From positions 3,296 through 67,295 of the forward strand of contig JAYKIL010000015.1 of the NCBI GenBank assembly GCA_035284745.1: 64,000 nucleotides of DNA, in the 5' to 3' direction. This DNA comes from JAYKJB01 sp035284745 [NCBI: Candidatus Sericytochromatia bacterium]. GTDB taxonomy: Bacteria > Cyanobacteriota > Sericytochromatia > S15B-MN24. Of the stretch, positions 18,287 through 64,000 are shown piece by piece; positions within the stretch are counted from its first letter, which is position 1, and each line of letters opens with the position of its first letter. Made by a program: the position numbers and the translations under genes. The notes under the pieces were generated by a model. It had not been told where the DNA came from and searched no databases. It saw nothing but the letters and a program-made list of their open reading frames with translations.

Positions 18287-18301
18287 GATCAGCGGCCTCG
18301 T

Positions 18302-28702: not shown

Positions 28703-28909
28703 GGCACTTATTTCCCCAATTTAAATCACAAAAGGCAAGGCGGCTTTCCTAACATCCTATAACAAAAGCGGGTTGCAGCCACCCGCACGCGAAAGACATC
28801 TCTCGGGTGGCAGGCTTTTTGAGGCCGCGATGTTGCTGGCCTTGCGAAGTGAGCGGGAGTCTCTTCCTGGGGTGGGGGGAGACTTCCGCTTTTTCGGGAT
28901 GGTTTTGCG
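28703..28909. other. intergenic region with two stem-loops
   Basis: Between the SulP stop and the DUF3370 start (both minus strand). Stem 1: GCCACCCG (28778-28785) with CGGGTGGC (28804-28811), then GGCTTTTTG on the plus strand. Stem 2: twelve pairs, AGCGGGAGTCTC (28852-28863) with GAGACTTCCGCT (28879-28890), including one G-T pair, then TTTTTC. Both have their T tract on the plus strand, opposite to the genes. An ATTTAAATT palindrome near 28722 may be part of the DUF3370 promoter. Confidence 0.5.
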
Positions 28910-30532: not shown

Positions 30533-30703
30533 ACTCTGACAGCTCCTCGTGTTGCGTTGCGCCATTAGGAGTGTAGCCTGTTTGCTGCGGGCGTGTGGTG
30601 AGCGCACCACTCTGCGGCTGCGTGCGGGAGGCCGTTGTTAAGCGTCTATCACGTGGGGAATATGGTCGTGGTAGAGGTGCAGAAAATGGTTTGGAGGCTT
30701 GTT

Positions 30704-44475: not shown

Positions 44476-44594
44476 TCCGAGAAACTCCTGTCTTACACGC
44501 GCAGATGCGTATAATACCGCTTGATGATCGTCATTGACCAGCCGTTGCGCGTCGATCACACCCCGTTGCGCGTGACCTGGGGTACAAATGGGGG

Positions 44595-50988: not shown

Positions 50989-51131
50989 ACATTATTTCTT
51001 ATCTTTGAAAGGGAAAAGAGGTCCTCGTATCATACCCAGGGCTGAAGGCCTGCGGTCTGTCGGATGACGCTTTGGCGTGCTCCTTTTATACTGAAGCGGA
51101 GCACGTAGGGTGAGGGGCAGATGGATTCGAC

Positions 51132-51545
51132 ATGCCGAGTTATTTTTTATTGAAAACGGAACCGAGTACCTACAGTATCGACGACCTTGAACGGGACGGA
51201 AAAACTGCTTGGGATGGTGTTCGCAACCACTTGGCGAAACGGCATCTTCAGGCGATGCAGGCAGGCGACCTGGCCTTGATTTATCACTCAGTGGACGAGC
51301 GTCGTGTGGTCGGTCTGGCGCGGGTGATCGGCGCAGCAAGGCCAGACCCGACAGATGCCTCCGGCAAGTTTGTGTGCGTTGATTTGGCGTTCGAACGGAG
51401 GATGCAGCGCCCCGTCACCTTGGCGGAATTTAAAGCGGCTGGATTTGACGACTTTGAATTGGTTCGGATGTCGCGTTTAAGCTGCATGCCTGTGCCGGCC
51501 GCTATCTTCGATTGGGTTTTGGCTCAGGAATGCAAGACGCCCTGA
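51132..51545 (+). CDS. EVE domain protein
   Basis: A 137-residue EVE (PUA-like) domain: YFLLKTEPSTYSIDDLERDGKTAWDGVRNHLAKRHLQAMQAGDLALIYHSVDERRVVGLARVIGAARPDPTDASGKFVCVDLAFERRM, PVTLAEFKAAG, MSRLSCMPVPAAIFDWVL. The KTEPSTYS, WDGVRNHLAKR and YHSVDERRVVGLARV lines match the thymocyte-nuclear-protein-1 (Thy28) family. Such domains read modified bases in DNA or RNA. The role in bacteria is often in defence or RNA modification, but no defence genes lie here. ATG 51132 is the first good start. Convergent with the M14 gene. Confidence 0.92.
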   Translation: MPSYFLLKTEPSTYSIDDLERDGKTAWDGVRNHLAKRHLQAMQAGDLALIYHSVDERRVVGLARVIGAARPDPTDASGKFVCVDLAFERRMQRPVTLAEFKAAGFDDFELVRMSRLSCMPVPAAIFDWVLAQECKTP

Positions 51546-51588
51546 GACTCATTTCATCCAGAACCCGGGGACCTCTTTGGGGGCCAAT

Positions 51589-53070
51589 TTACCGAGACCA
51601 CGTAATTTGCCAGGGGCCCCATATACCATTGCGGCCTTGGGCGTGAACCCAGAGGGGTTGGCGCGATTCAGACGCCATCTCGAGTCGCGCTTGCCCTGCC
51701 TTGAGTGTGACGGCTTTTCCAGAGCCAGGTCTGCCAGGACGTCCGAGGAAGGCTTCTGCCCGTCGAACATCCGGCGCGGCTGTCATCGTAATGGCGCCGC
51801 GCTGCCCTTGTAATTGCACGGGCGGGCCGAATGTTTGACCTGGGTTGTCTGCCACTTTCATCGCATGCAACATCATCGGTCGGTTCTCATTCCAGAATTT
51901 CGGTAGCCGTGACGAGGGAGGCATAAAACCGTCGTTCCAACCACCAATTTCAACGGTATAGGCCAAACTACCCAGCTTTGCGAAGGCCCAGTCCACGTCA
52001 TCGCCGCTGTTTAGGTACATCTTGGCGCCCTGGTAAGCCTTGTAGCCGGACAGTGCGCCCAGTTGCGAACCCAACTGTGCCAGCCGTGGATCCGGGGGGG
52101 GGGCCGATTGATGGTCCCAAGGCCACATCACCGAGTTGGCGTAGCTGTGAAAAGTGAGATATACCACCGGCTTGTGGCGGAGCAGTTGGTCACGAATCGC
52201 TTGTGTTTCGGGTTCCGAGAATGGTTTTGCGCCGCGGAAGGTGTCCGCTTCGGGGTTGCCACTGTCGCCCACAGTTCCCCACGCGATGTCGTAGTTTCGA
52301 TTCAGATCGACCCCGATCCGGCGCTTACCCCCTGTCAGGTTGTTCGCATTTTTTCTGCGGTCCACCCCTTTGACCGCGTGGATGTGTGCGTCGGGATTGA
52401 CCAAGGGAATGATCCAAAGGTCGCGGGTGTCAACCAACCCCGTCACTTCCGCATCCTGCCCATAGCTGTCGATCAGATCTTCCGCCATCTTCAAGGTGAT
52501 TTCAGGCGTGACGATTTCACGGGCGTGGTGACAACCCGCAATCGTGACATTGGGCTTTTCACCACCGCCGGTATTCAGGTGCAAGGCCCAAATTTCACGT
52601 TCAGCAATTCCTTGGGTCTTTTCCCAAGAGTCACCAATATCCACCATTTGGACAAATTCGGGATGCTTGGCCTGCAATTCTTTCATGCGTGACACAATTT
52701 GGTCGTAGTCTCGGTATCCCTTGTCTGCACGCAGGACGGTTTGACGAATCGGCCACTCGACCTCCATGCCAAGCTGCTCAGCCAGTTTGGCTTGGGATTC
52801 ATTCAGCTTTACTTTCGCGCGGCGTTGCGCAATGTCTACCGACCAGATGTCCACGCCAGCCGAGGCCAATTTGGTCAGGCGATCACGGTCCTTATAAAAC
52901 AGGATGGCTTCCCGCCCTTCGGTGCTCGAAGAGAAGGTCACCGCAGAAAAGCCCCGCATCGTTTCACGGGCCACGGGCAGACGCCCCGTCGCCCCGCATC
53001 CAGCCAAGGCCACGGTGAAGGTAGACAACAGCAGTGCCGCATGGAGTGCGATGCGAGAGGTGGACTTCAC
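51589..53070 (-). CDS. M14 family zinc carboxypeptidase, lipoprotein, with C-terminal extension
   Basis: A 493-residue lipoprotein (signal ending ALAGC, Cys25). An N-terminal domain (about 45-105, REAILFYKDRDRLTKLASAGVDIW) is shared with the other M14 enzyme in this window. Catalytic residues are intact: zinc ligands His182 and Glu185 in HHAREIV, His308 in LTFHSYAN, and Glu374 in YTVEIGG; LNRNYD is present. The usual NPDG is NPDAHIHAV, so the substrate pocket may differ from the paralogue. About 80 extra C-terminal residues form a beta-rich domain ending QPLWVHAQGRNGIWGPWQITW. It trims peptides at their C-terminus. A ten-C/G run lies within the gene at 52094-52103. Confidence 0.92.
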   Translation of the reverse strand: MKSTSRIALHAALLLSTFTVALAGCGATGRLPVARETMRGFSAVTFSSSTEGREAILFYKDRDRLTKLASAGVDIWSVDIAQRRAKVKLNESQAKLAEQLGMEVEWPIRQTVLRADKGYRDYDQIVSRMKELQAKHPEFVQMVDIGDSWEKTQGIAEREIWALHLNTGGGEKPNVTIAGCHHAREIVTPEITLKMAEDLIDSYGQDAEVTGLVDTRDLWIIPLVNPDAHIHAVKGVDRRKNANNLTGGKRRIGVDLNRNYDIAWGTVGDSGNPEADTFRGAKPFSEPETQAIRDQLLRHKPVVYLTFHSYANSVMWPWDHQSAPPPDPRLAQLGSQLGALSGYKAYQGAKMYLNSGDDVDWAFAKLGSLAYTVEIGGWNDGFMPPSSRLPKFWNENRPMMLHAMKVADNPGQTFGPPVQLQGQRGAITMTAAPDVRRAEAFLGRPGRPGSGKAVTLKAGQARLEMASESRQPLWVHAQGRNGIWGPWQITWSR

Positions 53071-53174
53071 AGTGTGCTCCTTTGCATTTTGGTCACCGCT
53101 TGATTGTAGCTTAAACAGGGCTTAACTTGCTAGCGGGGAAGGTTTTTTTGATCACCCAGGTCTTGTCCGTGTGT

Positions 53175-54368
53175 TCACCGGATGTAGATTGGATTCGAGA
53201 TGGCTGTCATGCTCGTGTTTAAACGAGGGAAACGTCGCAGCTCGGCCCGGACAAAATCGGTGCGAGGGCGCACCGGTATCGCGCAAGAAATGATTTGCTT
53301 GTCTTTGGTGACGTCGAAAATTCTCCAACGCCCTGCGGCTGTGTACAATACGACTTTTTTGCCCTGACCTCCGAGAACGTGCACGCGAATATTGAGGACG
53401 CCATTGGCACCCCGTGGCACGGTGTCTCCCATCATGGATTCGTATTGCCCGTCGCCATTGGCGTCTGCTTCCAGGTAAATGCGTCCGCTGGTGGGTGACT
53501 TTGTGATGGTCACCCGACCGGCACGAATGCCTCCCAAAATGCCCGCTTCATCCCTCGTTTCGGCAAAGACGATATTTACGTTGCGTGAAATGTCGTCATA
53601 CCACTGCCCATGATTGTCTGTTCCCGAGAGGGCTGTCAGGCGCCGCCCGGCTCGCAGCGATTTGTCCCACCAAGCCAGCGCTTTGTCGTTGTTGATAACG
53701 GGTTTCACGCGGGCCCACCAGCCATTCCACACCTCAATACCGTGGACGCGAGCATCGGGCTCGCTTTGCTTCCAGACGTTGTTGAGCGTGAAGGGATGGT
53801 TGATAACAATCGTGGCGTTTCGGCGGGTGGCCTCCCGCAGCATGGCGTCCAGACTCAGCCCTGTTGTAATGTTCTCGTTCCCCCGCAGGCCCAGCAAAGA
53901 CGCGTGTCCGACAACCTCTTCGCCACGTTCGCGAAATGCGTTCCATTCCATGCCTTTCACCATTGTCAGGTGGCCGGGGGGGGCTTGAAATTCCGGGCTC
54001 AAAGCCCCCCGCATCGTGTTGTGGTCCGTCAGGGCGAAGGCATCAAGACCCTGCAGATAGGCCTCTTGTTGCATCACTGTCAAAGGTTTTTTTCCGTCCC
54101 AGTAAGTGGAATGATTATGGTTGGAAAATAACAGCCATCGCCCTTGCCTGCCCGCCGGAACGGGTTGAGGGGCCTTGGAGAGGTCGATGTTGCCATCATC
54201 CTCATCCAATGCGGTATGTTGCCGCGCGCCCAAATCACTGTGAGCATTGTGATTCTCATTTTGAATCCGAACCCGCTCAGTGAGAACGGGCGTCGTCGCT
54301 CGTGCGCACCCCGCCGAAATGAGGATCCCAACAAATAAACACGCCCAGGGACGAGCAGGCTCAATCAC
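53175..54368 (-). CDS. CehA/McbA-like PHP metallohydrolase, exported
   Basis: GTG 54368 is chosen for the GTGGAG 8 nt upstream and the signal peptide that follows (PWACLFVGILISAGC, lipobox-like). A longer ATG form would add 20 residues. The mature part, 370 residues, is a PHP-domain metallohydrolase of the CehA/McbA type: LLFSNHNHSTYWDGKKPLTVMQQEAYLQGLDAFALTDHNTMRGAL (metal ligands H-x-H and D-H), MVKGMEWNAFRERGEEVVGHASLLG, TIVINHPFTLNN, IEVWNGWW, LTALSGTDNHGQW. It probably hydrolyses a phosphoester or carbamate-type bond; the family is named after carbaryl hydrolases. Divergent from the biosynthetic operon. An eight-G run lies at 53976-53983. Confidence 0.85.
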   Translation of the reverse strand: MIEPARPWACLFVGILISAGCARATTPVLTERVRIQNENHNAHSDLGARQHTALDEDDGNIDLSKAPQPVPAGRQGRWLLFSNHNHSTYWDGKKPLTVMQQEAYLQGLDAFALTDHNTMRGALSPEFQAPPGHLTMVKGMEWNAFRERGEEVVGHASLLGLRGNENITTGLSLDAMLREATRRNATIVINHPFTLNNVWKQSEPDARVHGIEVWNGWWARVKPVINNDKALAWWDKSLRAGRRLTALSGTDNHGQWYDDISRNVNIVFAETRDEAGILGGIRAGRVTITKSPTSGRIYLEADANGDGQYESMMGDTVPRGANGVLNIRVHVLGGQGKKVVLYTAAGRWRIFDVTKDKQIISCAIPVRPRTDFVRAELRRFPRLNTSMTAISNPIYIR

Positions 54369-54522
54369 GCATCGCACTCCACGGTGAAAGCCCCTGCCGG
54401 TTGGCAGGGAAGTTTCCGTTATCTCCACAACTCCTTTGAGGTTATAGGAGAAGGTGTTTTAAACCTGAAGTTAACAAACGATTAATATGGCGGGCCTGTC
54501 GTGAGGCTCATCTGCTCCTCTC

Positions 54523-54528
54523 TATAAT
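54523..54528 (+). promoter_or_regulatory. consensus -10 box of the biosynthetic operon
   Basis: A perfect TATAAT at 54523-54528, about 25-30 bp before the first start codon of the large plus-strand operon. The -35 region (TCGTGA 18 nt upstream) is weak, so an activator is possible. The transcript would begin near 54535 with a very short leader. Confidence 0.6.
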
Positions 54529-54554
54529 TCGCGGAGAAAATTATTGAATGAGGA

Positions 54555-56867
54555 GTGCTTGGTGGGTACAAGCAGGCCGTGTCTCAGTCTCCGTTCCTCA
54601 TTGCACTCAGTCGTTTCATTGTGGCGCGCGCGCGCTTCATCGTGTTGACCTGGCTTGTCGTGGCGGTGGTTGCAGGCGTTTTTGCTCCGCAGGCCCTCCA
54701 GCGCCTGGCCGGCGGAGGGGGCGAATTGCCCCGCAGTTCTGCCGCCGCCTTGGACCGGACGCTACAGGATCACTTTGAATCGCCGCTGTCATCGCGACTC
54801 GTCGTGGTCTTGGAAACCAAGGCCCAAAATGTGGAGTCCGAGGGTATCGCGCCCCTGCTGGCGCGCATAGGGCCTGCGTTGCGCACATTGCCGATGGTTG
54901 CGACGGTTGAAGGCCCGTTTCATCGCGGTGACATTGTTGGGGGTGAAGCGGATCCACATCATCGCACCTGGGTCGTGGGATTGCGGGGTGGTGACGCTTT
55001 GGCTGCGCAAAATGCGGTGCGCGAAATTCGTTCAGCCGTGCGGCCTTTGCGCAGAGAACTGGGAGCTATCGATCCCCAAGCATTGCTGGCCGTCACCGGC
55101 GGCTCCGCGGTGAATGAAGACATTGGGCAACGGAGCAAACAAGATGGTCAACGCGCGGAGATGCTCGCCACGCCCTTAACGATGCTGGTTCTGTGGCTGG
55201 CCTTCCGCACCGCGGGCGCCGCCGTTTTGCCGCTGCTCTGCGCGGGCTTTGCCATTGTGCTAACTTTTGGCTTGGCATTTGTGGTGACGAGTCTGACACC
55301 CCTCAGTGACCTGATGGAAAATCTGGTGACCATGGTGGGTTTGGCCGTGGGGGTCGATTATGCCCTGTTAATGGTCGAGCGGTGGCGCTACGAGCGCCGT
55401 GACCATGCCTCTGCTGAGGCAGTGGGACGCGCTGTTGTGCAGGCTACCCCGGCGATTGTGATCTCGGCCTGTGCGGTTTTGTGTGGCATGTTGGGCTTGG
55501 CTTTGGCCCCCTTATTAGAACTGCGAAGCATGGCCTTTGGCGGTGTGGCGGTGGTCGTGTTTTCCATGTTGGCGGCCATCACCTTGTTGCCGTCCTTGCT
55601 TGTCCTGGGCGCACGTTGGGTGGAGTGGCCCTCAGGCCTTCATCACGTTGATGGAGAGACGCGGAGCCAGCTTCGTTGGAGCCGCTTGGCGGGGTGGGTG
55701 GTTCGCTATCCGTGGCGCTTTGCACTGGGTGGGAGCCTCATCTTGGCTCTGTTGGTGGCACCTGCTCTCAGTTTTCAAAGCGGTGCGCCTCGCATGACGG
55801 ACTTTCCAAAGGATATGGAAAGCAATCAGGGGGTGGCCGCTTTGGGGCGCATGGGGGCGGGCAATCAAGTGTTTGACATCCCCATCGTGATTGAAACCAC
55901 CGATGGAAGCCCTGTGCTGGCTCGCCAGCATTTGGGGCCCTTGCATCGCTGGGTGCGGGAATTGGAGGCCGACGCACGGACCTTGCGCGTCTTGGGCCCC
56001 CTAAGTTTGCGGCCACAGATGAGTTCGCTGGCCGTGGCTTTGACTTGGCAGAACTGGGGCCGTGCGCTCGACCGCTTGCCCGATGTGCGAAGGGTTTTTG
56101 TGAGCCGCGATGGAACCCGTATGTTGATGACGGTCGTTCCGCATTCTGAGGTTTCAACCATCGCGATACAAGCGTTTGCCCAAGAGCTCACGACAAAATT
56201 GCCACCGGGCCCCTATCGCGTAAAAATTGGAGGGCAGCCCACCTATCTCAATGAACTCGAGGCCCGTTTGGCCGAAGCTGCCGTACCTGTTTTAGCGGGT
56301 GTTGGGGTATTAACGGCGCTGCTGCTGGGATGGGCATTTCGTTCGATCCTGATTCCCATTAAGGCGATTGGCTTGAACTTGTTGGCTGTCGCGTCTGGAT
56401 TTGGCGTGGTGACGGTGGTGTGTCAGTGGGGGTGGGGTGCATCGTGGGTGGGCTTGTCAGAACCACTGGTGCGGGTCCCGCCATTTGTCCCGCTGCTTAT
56501 GTTTTGCATTATGTTTGGACTTTCGATGGATTACGAAGTCTTTATGCTCAGTCGCATTCGAGAACGTTTGAGTGTCCATGGGGACCAACAGCGTGCCATT
56601 GTGGAGGGATTGGCCGCGACGGGCCCGGTGATTACCCACGCGGCTGCCGTCATGGTGATTGTTTTTGGGGCGTTCAGTTTCGCCGAGATTCTGGTTGTAA
56701 AGGTCTTGGGTATAGGATTGGCAACAGCGGTCATTGTTGATGCTTGTGTTCTGCGAACGTTTTTGGCGGGTCCTTTGTTGCTTCTCGCGGGCCGCTGGAA
56801 TTGGTATCCGGGCCTTCTGTCACGGCGGGTGGCCGTGTCGAAGGGGGCAGAGGAGGGAAGGCACTGA
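54555..56867 (+). CDS. MMPL family RND-type exporter
   Basis: A 770-residue integral membrane protein. GTG 54555 is taken; GTG 54579 is possible. It has the MMPL/YdfJ plan: an N-terminal helix (FIVLTWLVVAVVAGVFAP), a large periplasmic loop, a five-helix block including VGLAVGVDYALLMVERWRYE, the second half starting with another loop (about 420-580), then VLTALLLGWAFRSILIPIKA and MFGLSMDYEVFMLSRIRERL. The two G-x-x-x-D-Y motifs are proton-relay features. MMPL proteins export lipids or lipopeptides, such as mycobacterial virulence lipids. Its stop overlaps the start of the next gene, a fatty acyl-AMP ligase, so this is very likely the exporter of the pathway's product. Confidence 0.92.
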   Translation: MLGGYKQAVSQSPFLIALSRFIVARARFIVLTWLVVAVVAGVFAPQALQRLAGGGGELPRSSAAALDRTLQDHFESPLSSRLVVVLETKAQNVESEGIAPLLARIGPALRTLPMVATVEGPFHRGDIVGGEADPHHRTWVVGLRGGDALAAQNAVREIRSAVRPLRRELGAIDPQALLAVTGGSAVNEDIGQRSKQDGQRAEMLATPLTMLVLWLAFRTAGAAVLPLLCAGFAIVLTFGLAFVVTSLTPLSDLMENLVTMVGLAVGVDYALLMVERWRYERRDHASAEAVGRAVVQATPAIVISACAVLCGMLGLALAPLLELRSMAFGGVAVVVFSMLAAITLLPSLLVLGARWVEWPSGLHHVDGETRSQLRWSRLAGWVVRYPWRFALGGSLILALLVAPALSFQSGAPRMTDFPKDMESNQGVAALGRMGAGNQVFDIPIVIETTDGSPVLARQHLGPLHRWVRELEADARTLRVLGPLSLRPQMSSLAVALTWQNWGRALDRLPDVRRVFVSRDGTRMLMTVVPHSEVSTIAIQAFAQELTTKLPPGPYRVKIGGQPTYLNELEARLAEAAVPVLAGVGVLTALLLGWAFRSILIPIKAIGLNLLAVASGFGVVTVVCQWGWGASWVGLSEPLVRVPPFVPLLMFCIMFGLSMDYEVFMLSRIRERLSVHGDQQRAIVEGLAATGPVITHAAAVMVIVFGAFSFAEILVVKVLGIGLATAVIVDACVLRTFLAGPLLLLAGRWNWYPGLLSRRVAVSKGAEEGRH

Positions 56868-58537
56868 TGGCGACGGTACTCGATGAGATCATCCGCCTTA
56901 CTGCAGCGCGTCCTGCCGCGATGGCTCTTGGTCGTTTGGACGCGGATGGGCTTCCGGGCGCGACGCTCAGCCGGGGAGAACTGTTGGAATGTGCCCGCGG
57001 GGGGGCGACGCAACTCTTTGTGTTAATCCGCCCTGGCGATCGGGTGGTGTTGGCCTATGCGCCTGGTATTGACTTTGTGGTGGCGGTTTTGGCGGTTTGG
57101 ATGGCAGGTGGTGTTGTGGTGACAGCCTCTCCCCCCACGACGGATCGGACGCGCGAATGGCTTCTCGGGATTGTGCGGGAGAGCGAGGCGGCCTTGATGC
57201 TCACGAATGCCTCGCTGGTTCCCTCCTTGACCCCGTTTGGGCAGTTGGTTGGGGTGCCTGTCGCGAGCCTTGCGCCATCGTCGGCCGCCGAGGAAGCGGG
57301 GCTTCGCCGTGGGCCTTCTGACTTGGCCTTGCTGCAGTTTACAAGCGGCTCGACCTCAGCGCCGCGCGGCGTGCGCATCACGCACGAAAATTTGCTTGCG
57401 AACCTGGGGCAGATGATGGCGGCATCGCGTTTCAACGCAGAGGATGTCTGTGTGACTTGGTTACCTCATTATCACAATATGGGGTTGATGGGGGTCATTT
57501 TGTTGCCCTTGTGGGCTGGCTTTCCCACGCACTTGATGAGCCCCATGGAGTTTTTGGAGCGCCCTGGTCGTTGGTTGCGTGCCATTTCGGAGGTGCGAGC
57601 GACGTTCAGCGGAGGCCCTAATTTTGCCTTCGACCTTGCGGCCATTCGCACCAGTGGGGCGGAGGCGGAGGGGTTGGACCTTTCTTGTTGGCAGGCCGCC
57701 TTTTGTGGTTCCGAGCCGGTACGTCCCGCCACGCTCGCCCGTTTTTCCAAGCGCTTCACGCCCTTCGGCTTTGATGTTGGGGCCTTTTACCCCAGTTATG
57801 GCATGGCAGAGGCCACGCTGCTGGTGACGGGGGGCGCGAAACACGGCGGGGCGAAATCGTTCTTTTTGGATGCCGAGGCGTTGGCGGATGGACGTGCGTT
57901 GGAGGTCCCGGCTGACAGTCCGCGCGCGCGCGCTTTGGTGGGTCTGGGGCGCTGTTGGGGGGACCTGGAACTTGCGATTATCGATCCGGACCAGGGGTTG
58001 CGCCAACCGGAAGGGGTGGTGGGAGAGGTCTGGCTGCGGGGGCCGTCAGTCTCGGATGGTTATTGGCGCCCGGTGGACTCGAACCCTTTTGGCCATGCTT
58101 TGTCCGCCGAGACAGGCTGGCTGCGCACGGGCGATTTGGGCCTTCTTTTGCATGGGGAACTGATTCTCACGGGCCGAATGAAGGAACTGATCATCGTTAA
58201 TGGGCGAAACTTGTATCCCAGTGATCTTGAGCAGGCTTTGGAGGGATTGCGTCCGCGCGTACAAGCAGCGGTTGCTTTTGCGGTTGAGGCACAGCGTGGC
58301 GAACGTCTTGTGGTCATCGCCGAGGTGGACGCAGCGCTTGAGATGGAGGCCCAGAATCATTTGCAAGAGGAGATTCGCTTAGCCCTGCGACAGGAAGATG
58401 TGACCCCTCACGCGGTGGTGCTCGTTCCCCCGGGGGGGATTGTGCGGACTGCTACAGGAAAAATGGCGCGTTTTGCGACGCGAGATGCGTATGTGGCGGG
58501 TGCGTTGCCGTCTCTGATTGCGGCTGCATCCGTTTGA
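56867..58537 (+). CDS. fatty acyl-AMP ligase (FAAL-like)
   Basis: ATG 56867 overlaps the exporter's stop (TGATG). Of 556 residues, the ANL adenylation core is clear: P-loop-like LLQFTSGSTSAPRGVRITHENLLANL, WLPHYHNMGLMGVILLPLWAGFPTHLMSPMEFLERPGRWLRAISE, then AFCGSEPVRPATLARFSKRFTPFGFDVGAFYPSYGMAEATLLVTGG, a line characteristic of fatty acyl-AMP ligases, TGDLGLLLHGELILTGRMKELIIVNGRNLYPSDLEQALEGL. FAALs activate a fatty acid as acyl-AMP and hand it to a carrier protein rather than CoA. Two carrier-protein genes lie downstream in the same operon. Confidence 0.92.
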   Translation: MATVLDEIIRLTAARPAAMALGRLDADGLPGATLSRGELLECARGGATQLFVLIRPGDRVVLAYAPGIDFVVAVLAVWMAGGVVVTASPPTTDRTREWLLGIVRESEAALMLTNASLVPSLTPFGQLVGVPVASLAPSSAAEEAGLRRGPSDLALLQFTSGSTSAPRGVRITHENLLANLGQMMAASRFNAEDVCVTWLPHYHNMGLMGVILLPLWAGFPTHLMSPMEFLERPGRWLRAISEVRATFSGGPNFAFDLAAIRTSGAEAEGLDLSCWQAAFCGSEPVRPATLARFSKRFTPFGFDVGAFYPSYGMAEATLLVTGGAKHGGAKSFFLDAEALADGRALEVPADSPRARALVGLGRCWGDLELAIIDPDQGLRQPEGVVGEVWLRGPSVSDGYWRPVDSNPFGHALSAETGWLRTGDLGLLLHGELILTGRMKELIIVNGRNLYPSDLEQALEGLRPRVQAAVAFAVEAQRGERLVVIAEVDAALEMEAQNHLQEEIRLALRQEDVTPHAVVLVPPGGIVRTATGKMARFATRDAYVAGALPSLIAAASV

Positions 58538-58582
58538 ACTTGTTTTGGCTGCCTGGTCAGTTCTTGCTGTTGGAGGTTGTTT

Positions 58583-59170
58583 GTGTCGCTGGCTTTACTT
58601 GTACTGATTTGTATTAATTTCGCATGGATTGGCTATTTGCCTGTGGGGTTTTTTCGGCGCGATGGCAGCTTTAATTTCCGCTGGTGGCTCACAGGTGTTG
58701 CGTTCTTCTTGGTTCCGGCCTATGCGGTGACGCTACATTTTGTGGCCGTTCCTGATTTCCTCCGGCCCGTTGTGTTATCGGGGGGATGGGCGTCCGTTGC
58801 TGAGTTTCTGTCGGTTTTACTGGCGACGAGCTCGATTGGGCTGATTCACCTGACGCTTGGAACCCATCGAATACCTCTGGCCTTGTGGCATCAAGAGAAC
58901 GATGCGCCGCGTTCGATTGTGACCTATGGTGCGTATAAATACATTCGGCATCCGTTCTACACCTCCTTTCTGATGGCCTTTGCGGCGGGCGTTCTGGCCA
59001 TGCCAGGCTGGGTGATGGGCGCACTTTTGGTGTATCAATTTGTGGCTCTGAACGTGACGGCGCAGCGTGAAGAAACGCGTTTGGCTGCCTCTGAGTTTGG
59101 GGAGGACTACCGGGCCTACCTCGGCCAAACCGGGCGCTTCTTTCCCCGGCCTGGAGGAGGGGCTCTGTGA
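58583..59170 (+). CDS. isoprenylcysteine methyltransferase-like membrane protein
   Basis: GTG 58583 has GGAGG 6 nt upstream. 195 residues with five hydrophobic segments. The C-terminal half has the ICMT/phospholipid methyltransferase pattern: TYGAYKYIRHPFYTSFLMAFAAGVLAM, then FVALNVTAQREETRLAASEFGEDYRAYLGQTGRFFP, where the RHPxY and E-E-x...-F-x2-Y-x2-Y lines bind SAM and the substrate carboxyl. In operons with polyketide or fatty-acid genes, such enzymes methylate a product's carboxyl, hydroxyl or similar group in the membrane. Here it would tailor a lipid product. The next gene overlaps it by 4 bp. Confidence 0.8.
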   Translation: MSLALLVLICINFAWIGYLPVGFFRRDGSFNFRWWLTGVAFFLVPAYAVTLHFVAVPDFLRPVVLSGGWASVAEFLSVLLATSSIGLIHLTLGTHRIPLALWHQENDAPRSIVTYGAYKYIRHPFYTSFLMAFAAGVLAMPGWVMGALLVYQFVALNVTAQREETRLAASEFGEDYRAYLGQTGRFFPRPGGGAL

Positions 59171-60129
59171 GCGACGTGTATTTGCACGGTTTGGCTTTCG
59201 CTTTGGGCGATGACGCCGTGAGCCTGACTGACAGTGTGGCCGCTGGGCGGACCCTTTCGGACCTGGACACGCTGCGGGAAGCGGGCTTTCGTCAGCATCA
59301 CGTCGCAGCCCACGAGACGGAAGCCTATCATTTGGGTTTGCGGGCTTCGCAGGTGCTGTCGGGGGTGCCGGGTGTCGATATGTCCCGCACCGGGGCCATT
59401 GTCTATGCCACCTGTTTGACGTGCAATGGAAACCGAGGCCAGGAATCGGAGTTTCAACTGACCCGCGACGTGAAGCATTTGATGGACTATCCTGCGAGCC
59501 ATCTGCAGGCCGATCTCGACCTGCCCGAGGCGGCGGTCATCGGCCTGAATCAGCAGGCATGCACTTCGATGTTGGGCTCTGTGCGCGTGGCGCGCGCGCT
59601 TCTCCTTGCGGAGTCTGACATCGAGGGGGTTTTGTGCGTCAGTGCCGATCGCTTCCCGCCGGGTGCCCTCTACGAGCAAGCCTATAATTTGATTAGCGAT
59701 GGAGCGGCGGCGTGTTGGGTCGGTCGCGAGGCCAAGGGCTATCGTGTGGTCGCCACTCACGCCCTGACCAACGGTGCGCTGGCGCAAGCGTCCGATGATG
59801 AAACGGTGGGAAGTTATTTTGGTTACACGCACCGCTTGGTCACGGAATTGTTGCGTAAGGCGGGAATGACCGCTGAGCAGGTCGACTGGGTTGTGCCGCA
59901 GAACACGCACGTCAAAACGTGGGAGGTCTTGTCGAGACTGCTGCGCATTCCGCTCGAGCGGGTTTATTTCGACAGCATTGGCGATGTGGCCCACATTATC
60001 AGCAGTGATAATGTGGTGAATCTTTTGAAACTCGAAAATTCGGGAAAGATACAGACAGGACAACGCTTGTTATTGTTGATGGCAGGATTTGGTTTGAATT
60101 GGCAGGGGATCATACTTGAGAAGGTGTGA
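59167..60129 (+). CDS. KAS III-like 3-oxoacyl-ACP synthase
   Basis: A 320-residue thiolase-fold enzyme of the FabH (KAS III) type. The triad is visible: Cys132 in NQQACTSMLGS, His248 in PQNTHVKTWEVL, Asn282 in IISSDNVVNLLKLE, as in FabH Cys-His-Asn. SRTGAIVYATCL, VLCVSADRF and GQRLLLLMAGFGLNWQGIIL are other family lines. KAS III enzymes join an acyl-CoA or acyl donor to a malonyl- or other carrier-bound extender; some relatives make amides or esters instead. Its coupling to FAAL and ACP genes suggests it joins an acyl chain with a carrier-bound partner. Its actual substrates cannot be read. Confidence 0.9.
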   Translation: MSDVYLHGLAFALGDDAVSLTDSVAAGRTLSDLDTLREAGFRQHHVAAHETEAYHLGLRASQVLSGVPGVDMSRTGAIVYATCLTCNGNRGQESEFQLTRDVKHLMDYPASHLQADLDLPEAAVIGLNQQACTSMLGSVRVARALLLAESDIEGVLCVSADRFPPGALYEQAYNLISDGAAACWVGREAKGYRVVATHALTNGALAQASDDETVGSYFGYTHRLVTELLRKAGMTAEQVDWVVPQNTHVKTWEVLSRLLRIPLERVYFDSIGDVAHIISSDNVVNLLKLENSGKIQTGQRLLLLMAGFGLNWQGIILEKV

Positions 60130-60993
60130 ATGATGCTAAGTCTTGAAACGTTGGTTGAAAAGCTGAATGCAAGTTCTGAACGGGATTACCCGGCTCCGAC
60201 TTGGGGGCTTGAGTGGCCCGAGCAGTTTCCTGAAGGCGCGTGGGCGTTTTCCCCTGAGTTGCTTTCCCTAAGCGGATTGCCGGTGCTTGAGACCTTTAGC
60301 GAAGAGCAATTGAAACGCTTGGCCCTGCTTGAGGCCGGGAACTTTTTTAGTCTGAATATTAATGGTGAGAAGAGCCTGATTGAAGGCTTGGCACGCCAGT
60401 GTTATCGACCGCAAACGCATGCTGTGACCAGTTACATTCACCACTTTTTGGAGGAAGAAAGTCGTCACATGAGGACTTTCGGCGCTTTTTGCTTGAAGTA
60501 TGTTGGGAAGACCTACCCCGACAAAAAGATGGTATTTGAACGCGAATATGCGGAAGGTGAGGAAGACTTTCTCTTTTGGACCAAGGTCATGATTTTTGAA
60601 GAGACGGCGGATTCCTACAATGTCTATATGGCGGCTGATGAGCGATTGCACCCTCTGGTGCGAGGCATTCATAAGATGCATCATCATGACGAAAGCCGGC
60701 ACTTGGCTTTCGGGCGACAGATGGTGCGGGAAATTTGGGCCGAACACTCCCCGAAGTGGGATGCCACGGTAATTCAGGGGATACGAGCTTACCTAAATTC
60801 TTACGCCACGAGTGTGTGGCGCGAGTATCATAACCCTGAGGTGTATCGGGATATGGGTCTGGCGGATGCCTACGCGCTCTTCAAGGCCAGTTTTGATGGG
60901 CCGGTGGCCCGTGAACGGAGGGCCAAAATGTCGGCCAAGCCCATCAAGTTCTTGGTCGGTCTGGGCGTTTTTGAGGAGGATCCCGCGTGGTAA
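60130..60993 (+). CDS. AurF-like diiron N-oxygenase
   Basis: A 287-residue diiron oxygenase of the AurF/PABA N-oxygenase family. The expected metal ligands appear in order: a Glu near 68, the E-x-x-H of EEESRHMRTF (Glu110, His113), Glu157 in FEETADSYNVYMAADERLHPLV, and E-x-x-H in HHHDESRHLAFGRQMV (Glu188, His191) with His184/185 before it. Members hydroxylate an aryl or alkyl amine stepwise to hydroxylamine, nitroso or nitro. Here, next to an amino acid ligase and a carrier protein, the likely target is the amine of a carrier-bound amino acid. The start directly follows the previous stop, and the end overlaps the carrier-protein gene by 7 bp. Confidence 0.88.
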   Translation: MMLSLETLVEKLNASSERDYPAPTWGLEWPEQFPEGAWAFSPELLSLSGLPVLETFSEEQLKRLALLEAGNFFSLNINGEKSLIEGLARQCYRPQTHAVTSYIHHFLEEESRHMRTFGAFCLKYVGKTYPDKKMVFEREYAEGEEDFLFWTKVMIFEETADSYNVYMAADERLHPLVRGIHKMHHHDESRHLAFGRQMVREIWAEHSPKWDATVIQGIRAYLNSYATSVWREYHNPEVYRDMGLADAYALFKASFDGPVARERRAKMSAKPIKFLVGLGVFEEDPAW

Positions 60994-61244
60994 CTGAATC
61001 ACAATTGAAAGAGGCGTTGCGGAGTTGGTTGTCGCAGAAAAATCCGGCGGTGCCGGTGGAAACCATTGGTGATGATACGCCATTGATTGACCAGCGCCTG
61101 TTGACTTCCATTCAGGTGATGGATTTGGCGTTGTTCTTGGAGGACCTTCGCGGCGAACCGCTTGATATGACACGATTGAGGGCGGGAGCGTTTTCCTCGA
61201 TCAACGCGATATGGAGCACCTTTTTTGCCGGTGTGTCTGCGTGA
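60987..61244 (+). CDS. acyl carrier protein (first)
   Basis: An 85-residue carrier protein starting at GTG 60987 within the previous gene's end, behind GAGGAGG. The helical ACP pattern is clear: TPLIDQRLLTSIQVMDLALFLEDLRGEPLDMTRLRAGAFSSINAIWSTFF. The phosphopantetheine Ser is the one in LLTSIQVMD, replacing the usual DSL with TSI. Such a DSL-to-TSI change is typical of carrier proteins that work with dedicated aminoacyl ligases. It is followed by such a ligase, overlapping by 4 bp, so the two are a functional pair. Confidence 0.88.
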   Translation: MVTESQLKEALRSWLSQKNPAVPVETIGDDTPLIDQRLLTSIQVMDLALFLEDLRGEPLDMTRLRAGAFSSINAIWSTFFAGVSA

Positions 61245-62137
61245 GCGAAACGCTTGAGATTCCCGGGTTGACGTGGCGCCCGAATGGTCAATCGGTGTTG
61301 TCGGGGGATCTATTGGCGCTGTATCGTGACTTGGACGGGGGCTTTCGTTGGCTGGCCGAGCAGTCGAGGGCGTTGGAAATGGATGTCCCGCCGCTGTTTC
61401 CTGCAGAGGCGCTGCAACGTATCGATTATTTCTCATCTTTTCCTCATCTGGCCACCTTTGCGTGTGTTCACGCGGATGAACCCGAGAACCTAAAGGCCTT
61501 TGCTCGAGAACCTTGGAATTCACAGGGGGATGAATTGCGTTTGGGAACCTTGGCTCCCACGCAGAACGTACTGACGCCGGCCGCTTGCTATCACGTGTAT
61601 TTAGACCACGCGGGTTCGCGCCTCGAAGCTCCTTTGTATGTGACATTGTGCGCCAAGTGTTTTCGACGAGAAACGCATTATCAGCCTCTGCGTCGTCAGT
61701 GGGCTTTCAATATGCGTGAGGTTGTGTGTCTTGGAAAACCGGAGGAAGTAAAGGCATTTTTGGCGCGGCATCGCATGGTGATGCAACGCTTGGCTTCCCA
61801 CTTGGACCTTGCCTGCGAATTTGAACACGCGACGGACCCATTTTTTAATCCGGGGGCGAGTGGCAAGCATCTGATGCAACGGGTGGATCCCGTCAAAGAA
61901 GAGTTGGTTTTTTCTCACTCGCTCGCCATCGGTTCTTTGAATTACCATCGCAGTACGTTCGGTGAGGCCTTCGAGATACAGAGGGATGGAGAGCCTGTGC
62001 ATACCGGGTGTGTGGCGTTTGGTATGGAACGTTGGCTGTTTGCGTTGGTGAGCGTTCACGGGGTCTTGGAGGCTCGAAAACGAGTGTCAGGTTGGCTTTC
62101 AACTCCGCATCAGGTGATGGAGGGTTTGGCGCATTGA
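61241..62137 (+). CDS. amino acid:[carrier protein] ligase (class II aaRS-like)
   Basis: GTG 61241 overlaps the ACP stop and gives 298 residues. The protein is the catalytic core of a class II (seryl-type) tRNA synthetase without the tRNA-binding arm: LTPAACYHVYLDHAG, LYVTLCAKCFRRETHYQPLRRQWAFNMREVVCLGKPEE, HLMQRVDPVKEEL, EPVHTGCVAFGMERWLFAL. Cys116, Glu160 and Cys257 occupy the places of the zinc ligands known for this family (Bll0957 type). Such enzymes charge glycine, alanine or a similar small amino acid onto a carrier protein. The amino acid is not readable. It thus supplies the amine-bearing half for the pathway. Confidence 0.92.
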   Translation: MSETLEIPGLTWRPNGQSVLSGDLLALYRDLDGGFRWLAEQSRALEMDVPPLFPAEALQRIDYFSSFPHLATFACVHADEPENLKAFAREPWNSQGDELRLGTLAPTQNVLTPAACYHVYLDHAGSRLEAPLYVTLCAKCFRRETHYQPLRRQWAFNMREVVCLGKPEEVKAFLARHRMVMQRLASHLDLACEFEHATDPFFNPGASGKHLMQRVDPVKEELVFSHSLAIGSLNYHRSTFGEAFEIQRDGEPVHTGCVAFGMERWLFALVSVHGVLEARKRVSGWLSTPHQVMEGLAH

Positions 62138-63237
62138 AGCGAACGCTGATTACCGGAGGCGGGGGGCATATCGGCCTCGCGGTGGCGAGGCGCTTGGTCG
62201 CTGAAGAACGACCCGTGTGCTTATTTCTGCACGCCCAGAGTCGAGAAGAGGCCGAAGAAAAGCAGGCGTGTCTTGAGCCCCTCTTTGATGGGCACCGCGG
62301 CCTGGTTGCGTTTGCCGCGGGCACGATGCGTGCCGAGGACCCTTTTTCCGCTGTCAATTCTCAGGACATTAGCGAAGTACTGCATACCGCCTCCATCATT
62401 CGCTTCAACGTGGAAGCGGAGGATGCTGATGCGGTCAATGTGGCAGGGGCCCGGAAGGCCTTGGCTTTTGCCCGCCAGTGTAAGTATTTGGAAGGGTTTT
62501 CGCTGGTGAGTTCACTCTATGCGACGGGGCTTGCCGCGGGTGGGATTCCTGAGGCATTGTTGCCGGATTCACCTGGGTTTGCGAACCATTATGAGCGCTC
62601 GAAATGGGAGGCTGAGACCTTACTGGCGACGGCACAGGACGTGCCGTGGCGAATTTTTCGGGTCGCCACCATTATGGCGGATGACGACAGTGGGATATAT
62701 AGTCAAACCAATGCCGTGCACAACACCATCCGCTTGTTGTATTACGGCCTTATCTCGGTCATTCCGGGCTTGCCCGAGACTCCCCTGTATATGGTCACGC
62801 GTGACTTTGTAGTCGCTGCCATCACAGGACTGATGCGTCGTCCTGCTCATCAACGCGTTTATCACGTGGCCCATCCGTGGGCGTGCAATCCGACCTTGGA
62901 AACGCTTCTTGACATTGCCTTTGAAGAATTCGGAGAAGACCCTGGGTTTAAACGCCGCCGCGTGTTGCGCCCGTTGTATACGGACTTGGATGCTTTTCAG
63001 GCATTGGCCTCTGGAATGGCAGGCTATCAGAGCAGCGTGATCGCGCAAGCCCTGGCCACTCTGACTCCTTTTGCTCCGCAACTTTTTATTACCAAGGATT
63101 TTGAGACGCACTGGCTTCGTCAGGACTGGCCGGAGTATACGCCGATGGCGGGGGCTGCGGTGGCGCGTGCGGTGGTGCGCCAAGGTTTGGCTTCTCGTTT
63201 TGGCAAGGCGCCGTCGCAACAGGAGGTGGCTGGATGA
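62134..63237 (+). CDS. extended SDR reductase
   Basis: TTG 62134 overlaps the ligase stop (TTGA) and starts with the Rossmann loop: KRTLITGGGGHIGLAVARRLV. A 367-residue extended SDR of the epimerase/thioester-reductase type: TASIIRFNVEAEDADAVNVAGARKAL, VSSLYATG (Ser) and HYERSKWEAE (Tyr-x3-Lys) supply the catalytic residues, and FRVATIMADD follows. The C-terminal 130 residues form a substrate-binding domain. It resembles the reductase domains that release aldehydes or alcohols from carrier proteins and also fatty acyl reductases. It would reduce a carbonyl or a carrier thioester, using NAD(P)H, late in the pathway. Confidence 0.87.
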   Translation: MKRTLITGGGGHIGLAVARRLVAEERPVCLFLHAQSREEAEEKQACLEPLFDGHRGLVAFAAGTMRAEDPFSAVNSQDISEVLHTASIIRFNVEAEDADAVNVAGARKALAFARQCKYLEGFSLVSSLYATGLAAGGIPEALLPDSPGFANHYERSKWEAETLLATAQDVPWRIFRVATIMADDDSGIYSQTNAVHNTIRLLYYGLISVIPGLPETPLYMVTRDFVVAAITGLMRRPAHQRVYHVAHPWACNPTLETLLDIAFEEFGEDPGFKRRRVLRPLYTDLDAFQALASGMAGYQSSVIAQALATLTPFAPQLFITKDFETHWLRQDWPEYTPMAGAAVARAVVRQGLASRFGKAPSQQEVAG

Positions 63238-63797
63238 ATTTATCTGAAAACGAACGCTGGCTGCTGAGCTTTTATCGGATGTCTGAAATCAGCGGGTCAC
63301 TGTTTTTTGGGCGCTTGGCGAGAACGTTGCCTTCCGGCCCGGTGCAAATGGATATGACGCGCCATTTTGCGGATGAGGCCCAGCATGCGCGATATTGGAC
63401 GGATTGCCTGGACCGTCTGGGTGCTTCACCTTTGCGTTTGCCAAACTCGTACCAAGACCAGTACATCAATGCGGCGGGAATGCCTGTCAATTTGATGGAG
63501 GTCTTGGCACTCACGCAGGTTTTTGAGAGACGGGTGGTGCGCCAATATGTGAAACACATGGGCGCACCGGGTTTGAATCCGGTCATCAAAGAGACGCTTG
63601 AGAAGATCATTGACGAGGAAAAATGGCATCTGGAATGGATTGGACAGGCCTTGGTTGAGTTGGAGCCGAAGTATGGGCAAGCGCGTATTCAACAGGCATT
63701 AGACCGGTTTAGCGCCGCTGATTTGGCCGTTTATGCAGCAACGGCGAAAGAGCATGAGGAGCGGGTTGACGCGTTGTCGTTGCGATTGTCGCATTGA
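63234..63797 (+). CDS. ferritin-like diiron protein
   Basis: A 187-residue four-helix-bundle protein. The metal ligands of a ferritin-like diiron site appear: Glu18 in RMSEISG, E-x-x-H in DEAQHARYW (Glu48, His51), Glu98 in VFERRVV, and E-x-x-H in DEEKWHLEWIGQAL (Glu129, His132). It is distinct from the AurF-like enzyme in the same operon. Possible roles are a second oxidation (hydroxylation, desaturation or N-oxidation) or a peroxide-using step. Overlaps the previous gene by 4 bp, so it belongs to the same unit. Confidence 0.85.
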   Translation: MNLSENERWLLSFYRMSEISGSLFFGRLARTLPSGPVQMDMTRHFADEAQHARYWTDCLDRLGASPLRLPNSYQDQYINAAGMPVNLMEVLALTQVFERRVVRQYVKHMGAPGLNPVIKETLEKIIDEEKWHLEWIGQALVELEPKYGQARIQQALDRFSAADLAVYAATAKEHEERVDALSLRLSH

Positions 63798-63818
63798 ACG
63801 ATGGGAGAGGACGAGCGG

Positions 63819-64000
63819 ATGTCTTTAGATTTGAAAGAAACCTTAGCACGGATGTTGCAGTTGGACGTCGCCAAGGTGCAGCCTGATGTGTTGTTGAAGG
63901 ATCTGGTGACAGAGTCGTTTATTTTGATTGAACTGGTGATTAGCCTGCAGGAAGAACTGGACATCGTGTTGTTGCACGAAGAATTTGAAAGCGTGCGCAC
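63819..64000 (+). CDS. acyl carrier protein (second), cut by window end
   Basis: ATG 63819 has GGGAGAGG upstream; the frame runs to the edge, so the C-terminus is missing. 60 residues are visible: SLDLKETLARMLQLDVAKVQPDVLLKDL, then VTESFILIELVISLQEELDI. The phosphopantetheine site is probably the Ser of TESFILIEL. It is a second carrier protein in the operon, so there may be one for the acyl chain and one for the amino acid. The following genes are outside the window. Confidence 0.8.
   Translation, partial: MSLDLKETLARMLQLDVAKVQPDVLLKDLVTESFILIELVISLQEELDIVLLHEEFESVR

What the first reader, a model, noticed from the sequence alone, without database searches (positions are those of the whole stretch)
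54555..64000. Ten-gene, NRPS-free operon for an N-oxidised, fatty-acid-derived metabolite
Seen: exporter, FAAL, ICMT-like methyltransferase, KAS III-like synthase, AurF-like N-oxygenase, ACP, aaRS-like amino acid:[carrier protein] ligase, SDR, ferritin-like diiron protein and a second ACP, mostly overlapping by 1-7 bp. Known: FAALs load fatty acids on carrier proteins, aaRS-like ligases load amino acids on carrier proteins, AurF relatives oxidise amines, and MMPL proteins export lipids. Inference: a fatty acyl group and a carrier-bound amino acid are joined, the nitrogen is oxidised, and the product is methylated and exported. I know no characterised cluster with this set, and the operon continues past the window.
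Basis: partly seen in the sequence, partly recalled or inferred. Interest (0 to 1): 0.92.

Follow-up and report, generated by a model that had tools for sequence, protein, structure and literature searches.

The report
Ten-gene operon for N-oxidised aminolipid
Ten intact, tightly packed genes look like a small assembly line that joins a fatty acid to an oxidised amino acid without the usual giant peptide-making enzymes, and similar sets turn up scattered across very different groups of bacteria.

Summary
Window 54555-64000 carries ten same-strand genes without breaks: MMPL exporter, fatty acyl-AMP ligase (FAAL), ICMT-like methyltransferase (MT), KASIII-like enzyme, AurF-like diiron N-oxygenase, carrier ACP1, class II aaRS-like amino acid:carrier-protein ligase, thioester-reductase-like SDR, a second ferritin-like diiron protein, and ACP2 (cut by the window end). 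A relative (G866) has the same ten in the same order, 65-91% identical, and no recognised gene directly after ACP2; all ten look selected. Nineteen relatives of six phyla carry versions of the cassette; none of 58 other relatives of G866 searched has its KASIII.

Best reading: FAAL loads a fatty acid and the aaRS-like ligase a small amino acid on the two carriers; the AurF-like enzyme oxidises the amine; the KASIII-like enzyme joins them; the product is reduced, methylated and exported. This KASIII type has Cys-Gln-His (21 of 21) instead of FabH's Cys-His-Asn, fitting non-decarboxylative, thiolase-like or acyl-transfer chemistry. No product is known. The kind (FAAL plus AurF) is known from lipothrenin; I did not find this variant in ten searches of an open-access library.

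The parts
54555..56867 (+). MMPL-family RND exporter (770 aa)
   Evidence: PF03176 E 4e-73; 65% identical protein at the same place in G866; also found by blastp in L010 and L023 cassettes
56867..58537 (+). Fatty acyl-AMP ligase (FAAL), ATG start overlapping the MMPL stop
   Evidence: AMP-binding E 3e-53; seven FAAL models at 264-362 bits; the single best model, at 405 bits, is the N-terminal part of an NRPS/PKS model (PRK05691); all below curated cut-offs; junction
58577..59170 (+). ICMT/PEMT-like integral-membrane methyltransferase (MT)
   Evidence: PF04140 E 2e-6; RHPFY and E-x-x-L...FG-x-x-Y stretches shared with relatives
59167..60129 (+). KASIII-like condensing or acyl-transfer enzyme with Cys132, Gln245, His276
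   Evidence: PF08541 E 1e-13; alignment to three solved FabH-type proteins; residues kept in 21 of 21 proteins of this type; thiolase fold model
60130..60993 (+). AurF-like diiron N-oxygenase
   Evidence: PF11583 E 6e-28; E68, E110, H113, E157, H184, E188, H191 invariant in alignments of 6 and of 4 rows, window included
60987..61244 (+). ACP1, carrier protein next to the N-oxygenase
   Evidence: No library hit; Ser column kept in all 15 aligned rows; 29% identical over 72 residues to the annotated carrier protein at the same place in L001
61241..62137 (+). Class II aaRS-like amino acid:[carrier protein] ligase, GTG start
   Evidence: PF00587 E 5e-8; NF005479 158 bits, below its cut-off of 357; Bll0957 (3mey) E 4e-35 with the three zinc-ligand columns kept (ligand identity recalled)
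62134..63237 (+). Extended SDR of the thioester-reductase / NAD_binding_4 type, TTG start
   Evidence: PF07993 E 1e-23; TIGR01746 E 9e-20, 71 bits against a cut-off of 213; solved PKS/NRPS chains matched, best E 7e-10; YxxxK kept in all 15 rows
63234..63797 (+). Second ferritin-like diiron protein
   Evidence: E18, E48xxH51, E98, E129xxH132 invariant in 13 rows; model pLDDT 92; Foldseek no match at E 0.001 or better; second look: ADO Z 18.0, MiaE 17.3, VlmB 16.1
63801..64000 (+). ACP2, second carrier protein, cut by the window end
   Evidence: NF006031 E 8e-5, below cut-off; Ser column kept in 12 of 12 rows; complete, and apparently last gene of the set, in G866

Best explanation
The ten genes are one operon for a small exported aminolipid whose amino-acid nitrogen is oxidised. 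FAAL adenylates a fatty acid and loads it on one carrier protein (probably ACP2). The aaRS-like ligase activates a small amino acid, most likely glycine or alanine, and loads it on ACP1, doing the job that an NRPS adenylation domain does elsewhere. The AurF-like enzyme oxidises the amine of the ACP1-bound amino acid to hydroxylamine, oxime or nitro. The KASIII-like enzyme takes the fatty acyl group on Cys132 and passes it to the ACP1-bound unit. Its Cys-Gln-His set lacks the histidine that FabH uses in decarboxylation (recalled), so it should either make a C-C bond to an already acidic alpha carbon (as a thiolase does) or acylate N or O. The SDR then reduces the product or releases it from the thioester. 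The second diiron protein does a further oxidation of unknown kind, the membrane methyltransferase caps it, and the MMPL protein exports it. Shown by sequence: gene content, order, intactness, selection and catalytic residues. Inferred: substrates, order of steps and product.
For: Domain assignments; ligand and catalytic residues kept. AurF and the aaRS-like gene lie within 3 kb of each other in 76 of 80 loci; two plasmid loci outside those 80 (L004, L005) lack an aaRS-like hit and have an amino-acid adenylation protein beside AurF instead, which suggests that AurF enzymes of this branch act on a carrier-bound amino acid. All 19 relatives have an AMP ligase near the cassette by blastp; of 7 such proteins tested, one is FAAL-like, one matches the ligase half of an acyl-ACP synthetase, and the rest are CoA-ligase-like, one of them behind an Aas-type front half. 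MMPL, MT and FAAL also sit at the other end of the cassette in L023, so they belong although the order differs. Few non-synonymous differences in all ten genes. Nitronate monooxygenase homologues beside 12 of 67 AurF loci examined, one of the 12 being the query's own locus, and so annotated in plasmid loci L002, L003 and L006, hint at a nitro or nitronate intermediate in the wider family.
Against: No product or enzyme activity is known. L012 lacks the aaRS-like gene in its cassette, and none was found in its genome, of unstated completeness (13 of 14 genomes match, L012's does not), so loading by this enzyme is not universal. G866 has a second MT-KASIII-SDR unit on an 8.8 kb contig without AurF, ACP1 or the ligase there and only one close AurF in the genome, so the KASIII and SDR may do chemistry that does not need the N-oxidised unit. 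The window, L093, L098 and L101 show no phosphopantetheinyl transferase in the cassette. The nitronate monooxygenase link concerns loci outside the cassette group. The ligase scores well below the NCBIfam cut-off of the Bll0957-type model. The zinc-ligand roles and the Gly/Ala preference are recalled, not read here.
Confidence: 0.62

Rival explanations
1. Lipid hydroxamate pathway in the manner of lipothrenin: an N-acyl amino acid is made and the AurF-like enzyme hydroxylates the amide or amine, giving an N-hydroxy lipoamino acid, perhaps a metal chelator. The SDR reduces the carboxyl end to aldehyde or alcohol. (This overlaps with the N-acylation branch of the best explanation, so the odds do not add to one.)
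For: The lit cluster combines KASIII, FAAL, ACP and an AurF-like diiron N-oxygenase, and its product is an N-hydroxylated fatty acyl threonine (passages of PMC10616846). KASIII-fold acyltransferases (ChlB3, and DpsC) are among the structural neighbours of the model.
Against: The lit gene table lists no aaRS-like ligase and has genes (ThiF-like, GMC oxidoreductase) that are absent here. Lipothrenin's KASIII was assigned to fatty acid supply, not to the joining step.
Confidence: 0.3
2. Azoxy or other N-N pathway in the manner of valanimycin: two amine-bearing units are joined through a hydroxylamine ester and a diiron protein acts as azoxy synthase.
For: VlmB, the diiron azoxy synthase, is among the structural neighbours of the second diiron protein (Z 16.1), and the valanimycin pathway uses seryl-tRNA (passages of PMC11705231).
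Against: None of the ten proteins matches a flavin N-hydroxylase, aminotransferase or decarboxylase in Pfam or NCBIfam at E 0.001. VlmB's Z lies below ADO and MiaE by one to two units. VlmA- and VlmO-like genes were not specifically searched for.
Confidence: 0.06
3. Two unrelated short gene sets that happen to lie together (a lipid set and an amino-acid N-oxidation set).
For: AurF with the ligase occurs without the rest of the cassette in many actinomycetes, L018 and L019 hold the two sets on opposite strands, and G866 has an MT-KASIII-SDR unit without AurF.
Against: In L018 and L019 the two sets still stay adjacent; the cassette recurs in 19 relatives of six phyla; cassette AurF proteins lie in one supported group of 19 rows, 16 cassette and 3 not, in a 50-row tree.
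Confidence: 0.05

Closest known systems
Lipothrenin (lit) cluster of Streptomyces aureus LU18118 (PMC10616846, passages seen)
   Same: FAAL, ACP, KASIII and an AurF-like diiron N-oxygenase; no NRPS module in the gene table shown; product is an N-oxidised fatty acyl amino acid
   Different: No aaRS-like carrier-protein ligase, thioester-reductase SDR, second diiron protein of this kind or MMPL in its table (it lists one ribonucleotide-reductase-like gene and an MFS permease); instead ThiF-like, GMC oxidoreductase, lipase and others
Bll0957-type amino acid:[carrier protein] ligases (PDB 3mey and others)
   Same: Class II aaRS core, zinc-ligand columns kept, carrier protein gene next door
   Different: Sits beside an N-oxygenase; scores below the cut-off of the NCBIfam model of this type (158 against 357 bits)
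AurF / CmlI / Dob3 ferritin-like diiron oxygenases (Dob3: PMC13061610, passages seen)
   Same: PF11583; six iron ligands plus the seventh His of N-oxygenases, matched by spacing
   Different: Likely substrate is a carrier-bound aliphatic amino acid rather than an aryl amine or hydrazone (inference)
FabH (KASIII) and thiolases
   Same: Thiolase fold, nucleophilic Cys
   Different: Gln in place of FabH's catalytic His, His in place of its Asn; resembles the Asn/His pair of thiolases (recalled)
Fragin/valdiazen ham, mangotoxin mgo and pvf clusters (recalled; a ham paper, PMC11659414, seen in search listings only)
   Same: AurF-like oxidation of an amino acid
   Different: As recalled they use an NRPS to load the amino acid and have no FAAL/KASIII cassette; not checked here

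Membership tests
AurF-like diiron N-oxygenase | PF11583 above its gathering score | tested here: met
   98.2 bits against 29.6
AurF-like diiron N-oxygenase | Six metal ligands and the seventh His | tested here: met
   E68, E110, H113, E157, E188, H191 and H184 invariant; matched by spacing to the Dob3 list in PMC13061610
AurF-like diiron N-oxygenase | Oxidises an amine nitrogen | not testable with these tools
   No assay possible
Amino acid:[carrier protein] ligase | Class II aaRS core with the zinc ligands of Bll0957 (C131, E176, C279; recalled) | tested here: met
   C116, E160, C257 aligned to them
Amino acid:[carrier protein] ligase | NCBIfam equivalog NF005479 above its cut-off | tested here: not met
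   158.4 bits against 357; so a relative, not that equivalog
Amino acid:[carrier protein] ligase | Carrier protein encoded alongside | tested here: met
   ACP1 overlaps it
KASIII (FabH) | PF08541 and thiolase fold | tested here: met
KASIII (FabH) | Cys-His-Asn catalytic triad | tested here: not met
   Cys-Gln-His in 21 of 21 proteins of this type; of five control KASIII-like proteins one shows Cys-His-Asn, two Cys-His-His, and two lack the Cys
Fatty acyl-AMP ligase | Better matches to FAAL than to CoA-ligase models | tested here: met
   Among the best 25 of 98 models: FAAL models 264-362 bits; CoA-ligase models at 142 bits or less except PRK07768 at 358; best of all a 405-bit match to the N-terminal part of an NRPS/PKS model; all below curated cut-offs
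Lipothrenin-type cluster | ThiF-like and GMC oxidoreductase genes of the lit table | tested here: not met
   None among the ten genes
Azoxy (valanimycin-type) pathway | Flavin N-hydroxylase and VlmA/VlmO-type genes | tested here: inconclusive
   No flavin oxygenase among the ten; VlmA and VlmO not searched for by sequence
NRPS cluster | Condensation domain or amino-acid adenylation domain | tested here: not met
   No PF00668; one AMP-binding protein, FAAL-like, with the amino-acid adenylation model TIGR01733 at 127 bits against a cut-off of 317

The most novel reading that the evidence does not exclude
The KASIII-like enzyme is a thiolase-style C-C synthase that uses an N-oxygenated aminoacyl-ACP, for instance nitroacetyl-ACP made from glycyl-ACP by the AurF-like enzyme, as its carbon nucleophile. 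Because the nitro group makes the alpha carbon acidic, no malonyl unit and no decarboxylation are needed, which would explain why FabH's His and Asn are replaced by Gln and His in all 21 proteins of this type. The cassette would then be a new, NRPS-free and malonyl-free way to make nitro- or oximino-lipids, passed around by horizontal transfer among phyla from Acidobacteriota to Streptomyces and relatives of cyanobacteria.
Probability: 0.2. Interest if true: 0.86.

Novelty: new variant of a known kind. Interest (0 to 1): 0.64.

Why it matters
If right, a tRNA-synthetase relative stands in for an NRPS adenylation domain to feed an amino acid to an N-oxygenase, and a condensing enzyme with a rewired active site joins it to a fatty acid. 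The set is compact, unbroken and widely scattered, and three carriers appear to be isolates by their titles (Streptomyces sp. PH10-H1, Streptomyces prunicolor, Actinacidiphila oryziradicis), so it can be tied to a compound. It also offers a handle on metabolites of poorly known lineages such as Obscuribacterales, Omnitrophota and Silvanigrellales.

Tried and rejected
Viral contigs: 30 stretches matched a pattern, none encoded a relative of the AurF-like protein. PDB sequence search with the AurF-like protein: no hit at E 0.001, although Pfam is clear. Phylum of G008: KASIII profile 0 of 282 (the tool notes that an empty answer without a positive control shows nothing). No Rfam match at gathering score in 50000-64000. 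Promoter and terminator scans gave about chance numbers (4 against 3.4; 17 against 14.6) and were not used. The idea that the gene in front of AurF in L001 and L003 is the same KASIII was rejected: no meaningful alignment. Hydrazinoacetate/diazo (dob, azaserine) membership was considered and dropped, since none of the ten proteins has a Pfam or NCBIfam match of the lysine N-oxygenase or MetRS-cupin kind that passages of PMC13061610 describe. Nocuolin was considered because of FAAL plus AurF-like genes, but passages of PMC5333925 class noc as a hybrid PKS/NRPS cluster. Iron storage by the second diiron protein seems less likely than an oxygenase: ADO and MiaE rank above bacterioferritins, but only by one to two Z units, and Foldseek alone gave no match at E 0.001 or better. 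The annotation of neighbours in the actinomycete loci L024, L041 and L079 was begun and given up, as long frames in GC-rich DNA could not be told apart.

Statement on print: ten searches of the open PMC library listed no paper that I recognised as describing this gene combination; most subscription papers are not held. PMC10616846, PMC13061610, PMC5719088, PMC11705231, PMC5333925 and PMC2922099 were seen as passages only; all other papers as search listings.
Full report
WHAT IS THERE. From 54555 to the window end ten open frames follow each other on the + strand. Pfam and NCBIfam identify an MMPL exporter, a FAAL-type AMP ligase, an ICMT-like membrane methyltransferase (MT), a KASIII-like protein, an AurF-like protein, a class II aaRS-like ligase, an SDR of the thioester-reductase type and a rubrerythrin-like protein; two small carrier proteins complete the set, one without library hit and one with a weak hit. 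Those scans used the longest reading of each frame; junction sequences then led to starts at 56867 for FAAL, 61241 for the ligase and 62134 for the SDR, with stop/start overlaps at most joints. To the left lies a divergent frame (53175-54428) without Pfam match. Of 20 other window frames scanned (that one included), the matches are ordinary (peptidases, carbohydrate kinase, carboxyltransferase, CoA transferase, esterase, repeat proteins). The tenth gene is cut at base 64000.

HOST AND CLOSEST RELATIVE. No genome is held for the window. Its carboxyltransferase (42901-44559) is 86% identical to proteins of G866 and G884, two genomes of the phylum to which G006, the genome of the Obscuribacterales locus L013, belongs, so the host is probably a relative of that lineage (inference). 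G866 carries the same ten genes in the same order, 65-91% identical. Right after its ACP2 a 229-aa frame opens, but it has no Pfam match and a GC pattern by codon position unlike that of four cassette genes, while an overlapping frame at 18147-18812 has the expected pattern and opens like a lipoprotein (own reading). The operon is thus most likely complete at ten genes. The best matches of the window's left neighbours lie on contigs C117 and C95 of G866, not beside the operon on C21, so it sits at different places in the two genomes. Against G866, all ten genes have pS 0.71-0.93 and pN 0.05-0.24; in six of ten dS is beyond computing. They look old, unbroken and selected.

DISTRIBUTION. One scan of genome contigs with an AurF profile kept the best 80 of 231 loci. 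Record titles and the tree's labels give Omnitrophota, Acidobacteriota, Proteobacteria/Deltaproteobacteria (L009 and L010, whose genomes share a class), Actinomycetota (including Streptomyces, Actinacidiphila, Sphaerisporangium), Silvanigrellales and Obscuribacterales. Twelve of the 19 are MAGs by title, and several contigs are short, so a missing gene at an edge means little. With the KASIII profile, 2 of 148, 3 of 396, 0 of 282, 3 of 386 and 1 of 59 genomes of five partly overlapping groups matched. In four of these the count includes the group's centre genome itself; beside the centre genomes and G004 (whose own KASIII is a row of the profile) the matches are G227, G348, G866 and G1085. In the last search G866 is the only match, so none of its 58 other relatives. 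Completeness is not told. An AurF tree of 50 rows (window, 44 of the 80 loci and 5 plasmid loci) puts the 16 cassette proteins, window included, and three others (L020, L021, L037) in one group (100/99), hosts of different phyla side by side; the cassette label needs 2 changes against 13.7 in shuffles. The tree warns of long branches, and the window's place next to L012 (93/89) is unsure. Patchiness and mixing point to horizontal transfer.

VARIATION. By blastp, MT occurs in 12 of 19 relatives; in 5 others (L010, L011, L015, L016, L017) a DUF3419 gene lies nearby instead, with a GNAT gene or part in four of them; none shows both MT and DUF3419, and two short contigs (L018, L019) show neither (Pfam confirmed DUF3419 in L010 and L016). 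A phosphopantetheinyl transferase is found in 13 of the 17 cassette loci, mostly between SDR and ferritin-like gene, and in one frame with the ACP2 domain in L023 (Pfam) and L022 (blastp); the window, L093, L098 and L101 lack it there, and L016, L018 and L019 end too soon. MMPL was found only in the window, L098, L010 and L023; HlyD-type proteins follow the cassette in L013 and L101. All 19 have an AMP ligase nearby, of different kinds in the seven tested.

THE AMINO-ACID SIDE. In 76 of the 80 loci the AurF gene has an aaRS-like gene within 3 kb; the exceptions are L012, L016 (whose contig ends in AurF; its genome does hold the ligase), L021 and L037. Plasmid loci L004 and L005 have adenylation proteins beside AurF instead, and L021 a type I PKS. 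I infer that AurF enzymes of this branch work on carrier-bound amino acids. The ligase matches Bll0957, a solved amino acid:[carrier protein] ligase, at E 4e-35 with the three zinc-ligand columns kept (ligand identity and the Gly/Ala preference of that family are recalled). All seven AurF-type ligands are present. Nitronate monooxygenase homologues in 12 of 67 further loci, the query's own included, suggest nitro or nitronate chemistry in the wider family, not in this cassette.

THE LIPID SIDE AND THE JOINING STEP. phmmer alignments to three FabH-type structures place Gln245 on FabH's catalytic His and His276 on its Asn, with Cys132 aligned to the Cys in the one alignment that covers it. All 21 proteins of this type examined have Cys-Gln-His (18; L098, L100 and L101; L100 is the unit without AurF). 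Five controls: a FabH-like protein of L003 shows Cys-His-Asn; KASIII-like proteins near AurF in L048 and L065 show Cys-His-His; two L003 paralogues lack the Cys but have Asn and His at the other two places. From recalled thiolase-superfamily knowledge, an amide residue plus His at these two places is the thiolase arrangement, used for non-decarboxylative Claisen chemistry; acyl transfer to N or O is the alternative. The model (pLDDT 84.5, with residues 85-92 and 98-107 under 50) finds FabH, NatS, ChlB3 and DpsC folds. The SDR keeps the YxxxK motif in 15 rows and matches PKS and NRPS chains in the PDB that I take to be reductase domains.

THE SECOND DIIRON PROTEIN. Four Glu and two His in a ferritin-like pattern are invariant in 13 rows. 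The model is confident (pLDDT 92). Foldseek found no match at E 0.001 or better; the second look puts aldehyde-deformylating oxygenases (Z 18.0), a protein of unknown function (17.8), MiaE (17.3), bacterioferritin (16.4) and VlmB (16.1) close together. An oxygenase is likely; its substrate is open. The pairing of a thioester reductase with an ADO-like fold recalls the acyl-ACP reductase/ADO pair, but this is only a resemblance.

VERDICT. A real, unbroken, apparently transferable ten-gene operon whose parts fit an N-oxidised aminolipid. It is a new variant of a known kind (lipothrenin-like FAAL plus AurF), distinguished by the aaRS-like loading enzyme, the reductase and second diiron protein, and the unusual KASIII-like active site. 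The product is unknown.

Noticed in passing
L100 (G866 contig C45) 3-2747: A second MT-KASIII-SDR set, 43-54% identical to the window's, with no AurF, ACP1 or ligase on the 8.8 kb contig, which ends in the SDR. The genome has only one close AurF.
   Followed up: partly
L101 2033-3049 and L102 5923-6939 (G1085 contig C1): Two 99.9% identical DDE transposase genes in direct orientation about 24 kb apart on either side of a cassette, with an ATP synthase subunit gene also between them.
   Followed up: partly
L010 3474-5767, L016 4526-6774, L015, L017, L011: DUF3419 (and in four of them GNAT) genes near the cassette in five relatives, none of which shows the ICMT-like methyltransferase: alternative tailoring?
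   Followed up: partly
L012 2795-5035: Cassette without the aaRS-like gene; none found elsewhere in that genome.
   Followed up: partly
L023 13742-14644 and L022 5057-5944: One frame holding a phosphopantetheinyl transferase followed by the ACP2 carrier domain (Pfam for L023, blastp for L022).
   Followed up: partly
L048 12694, L065 13352: KASIII-like proteins with Cys-His-His near other AurF-ligase pairs.
   Followed up: partly
window 27287-30610: A DUF3370 protein and a BicA/SulP-type transporter side by side.
   Followed up: no
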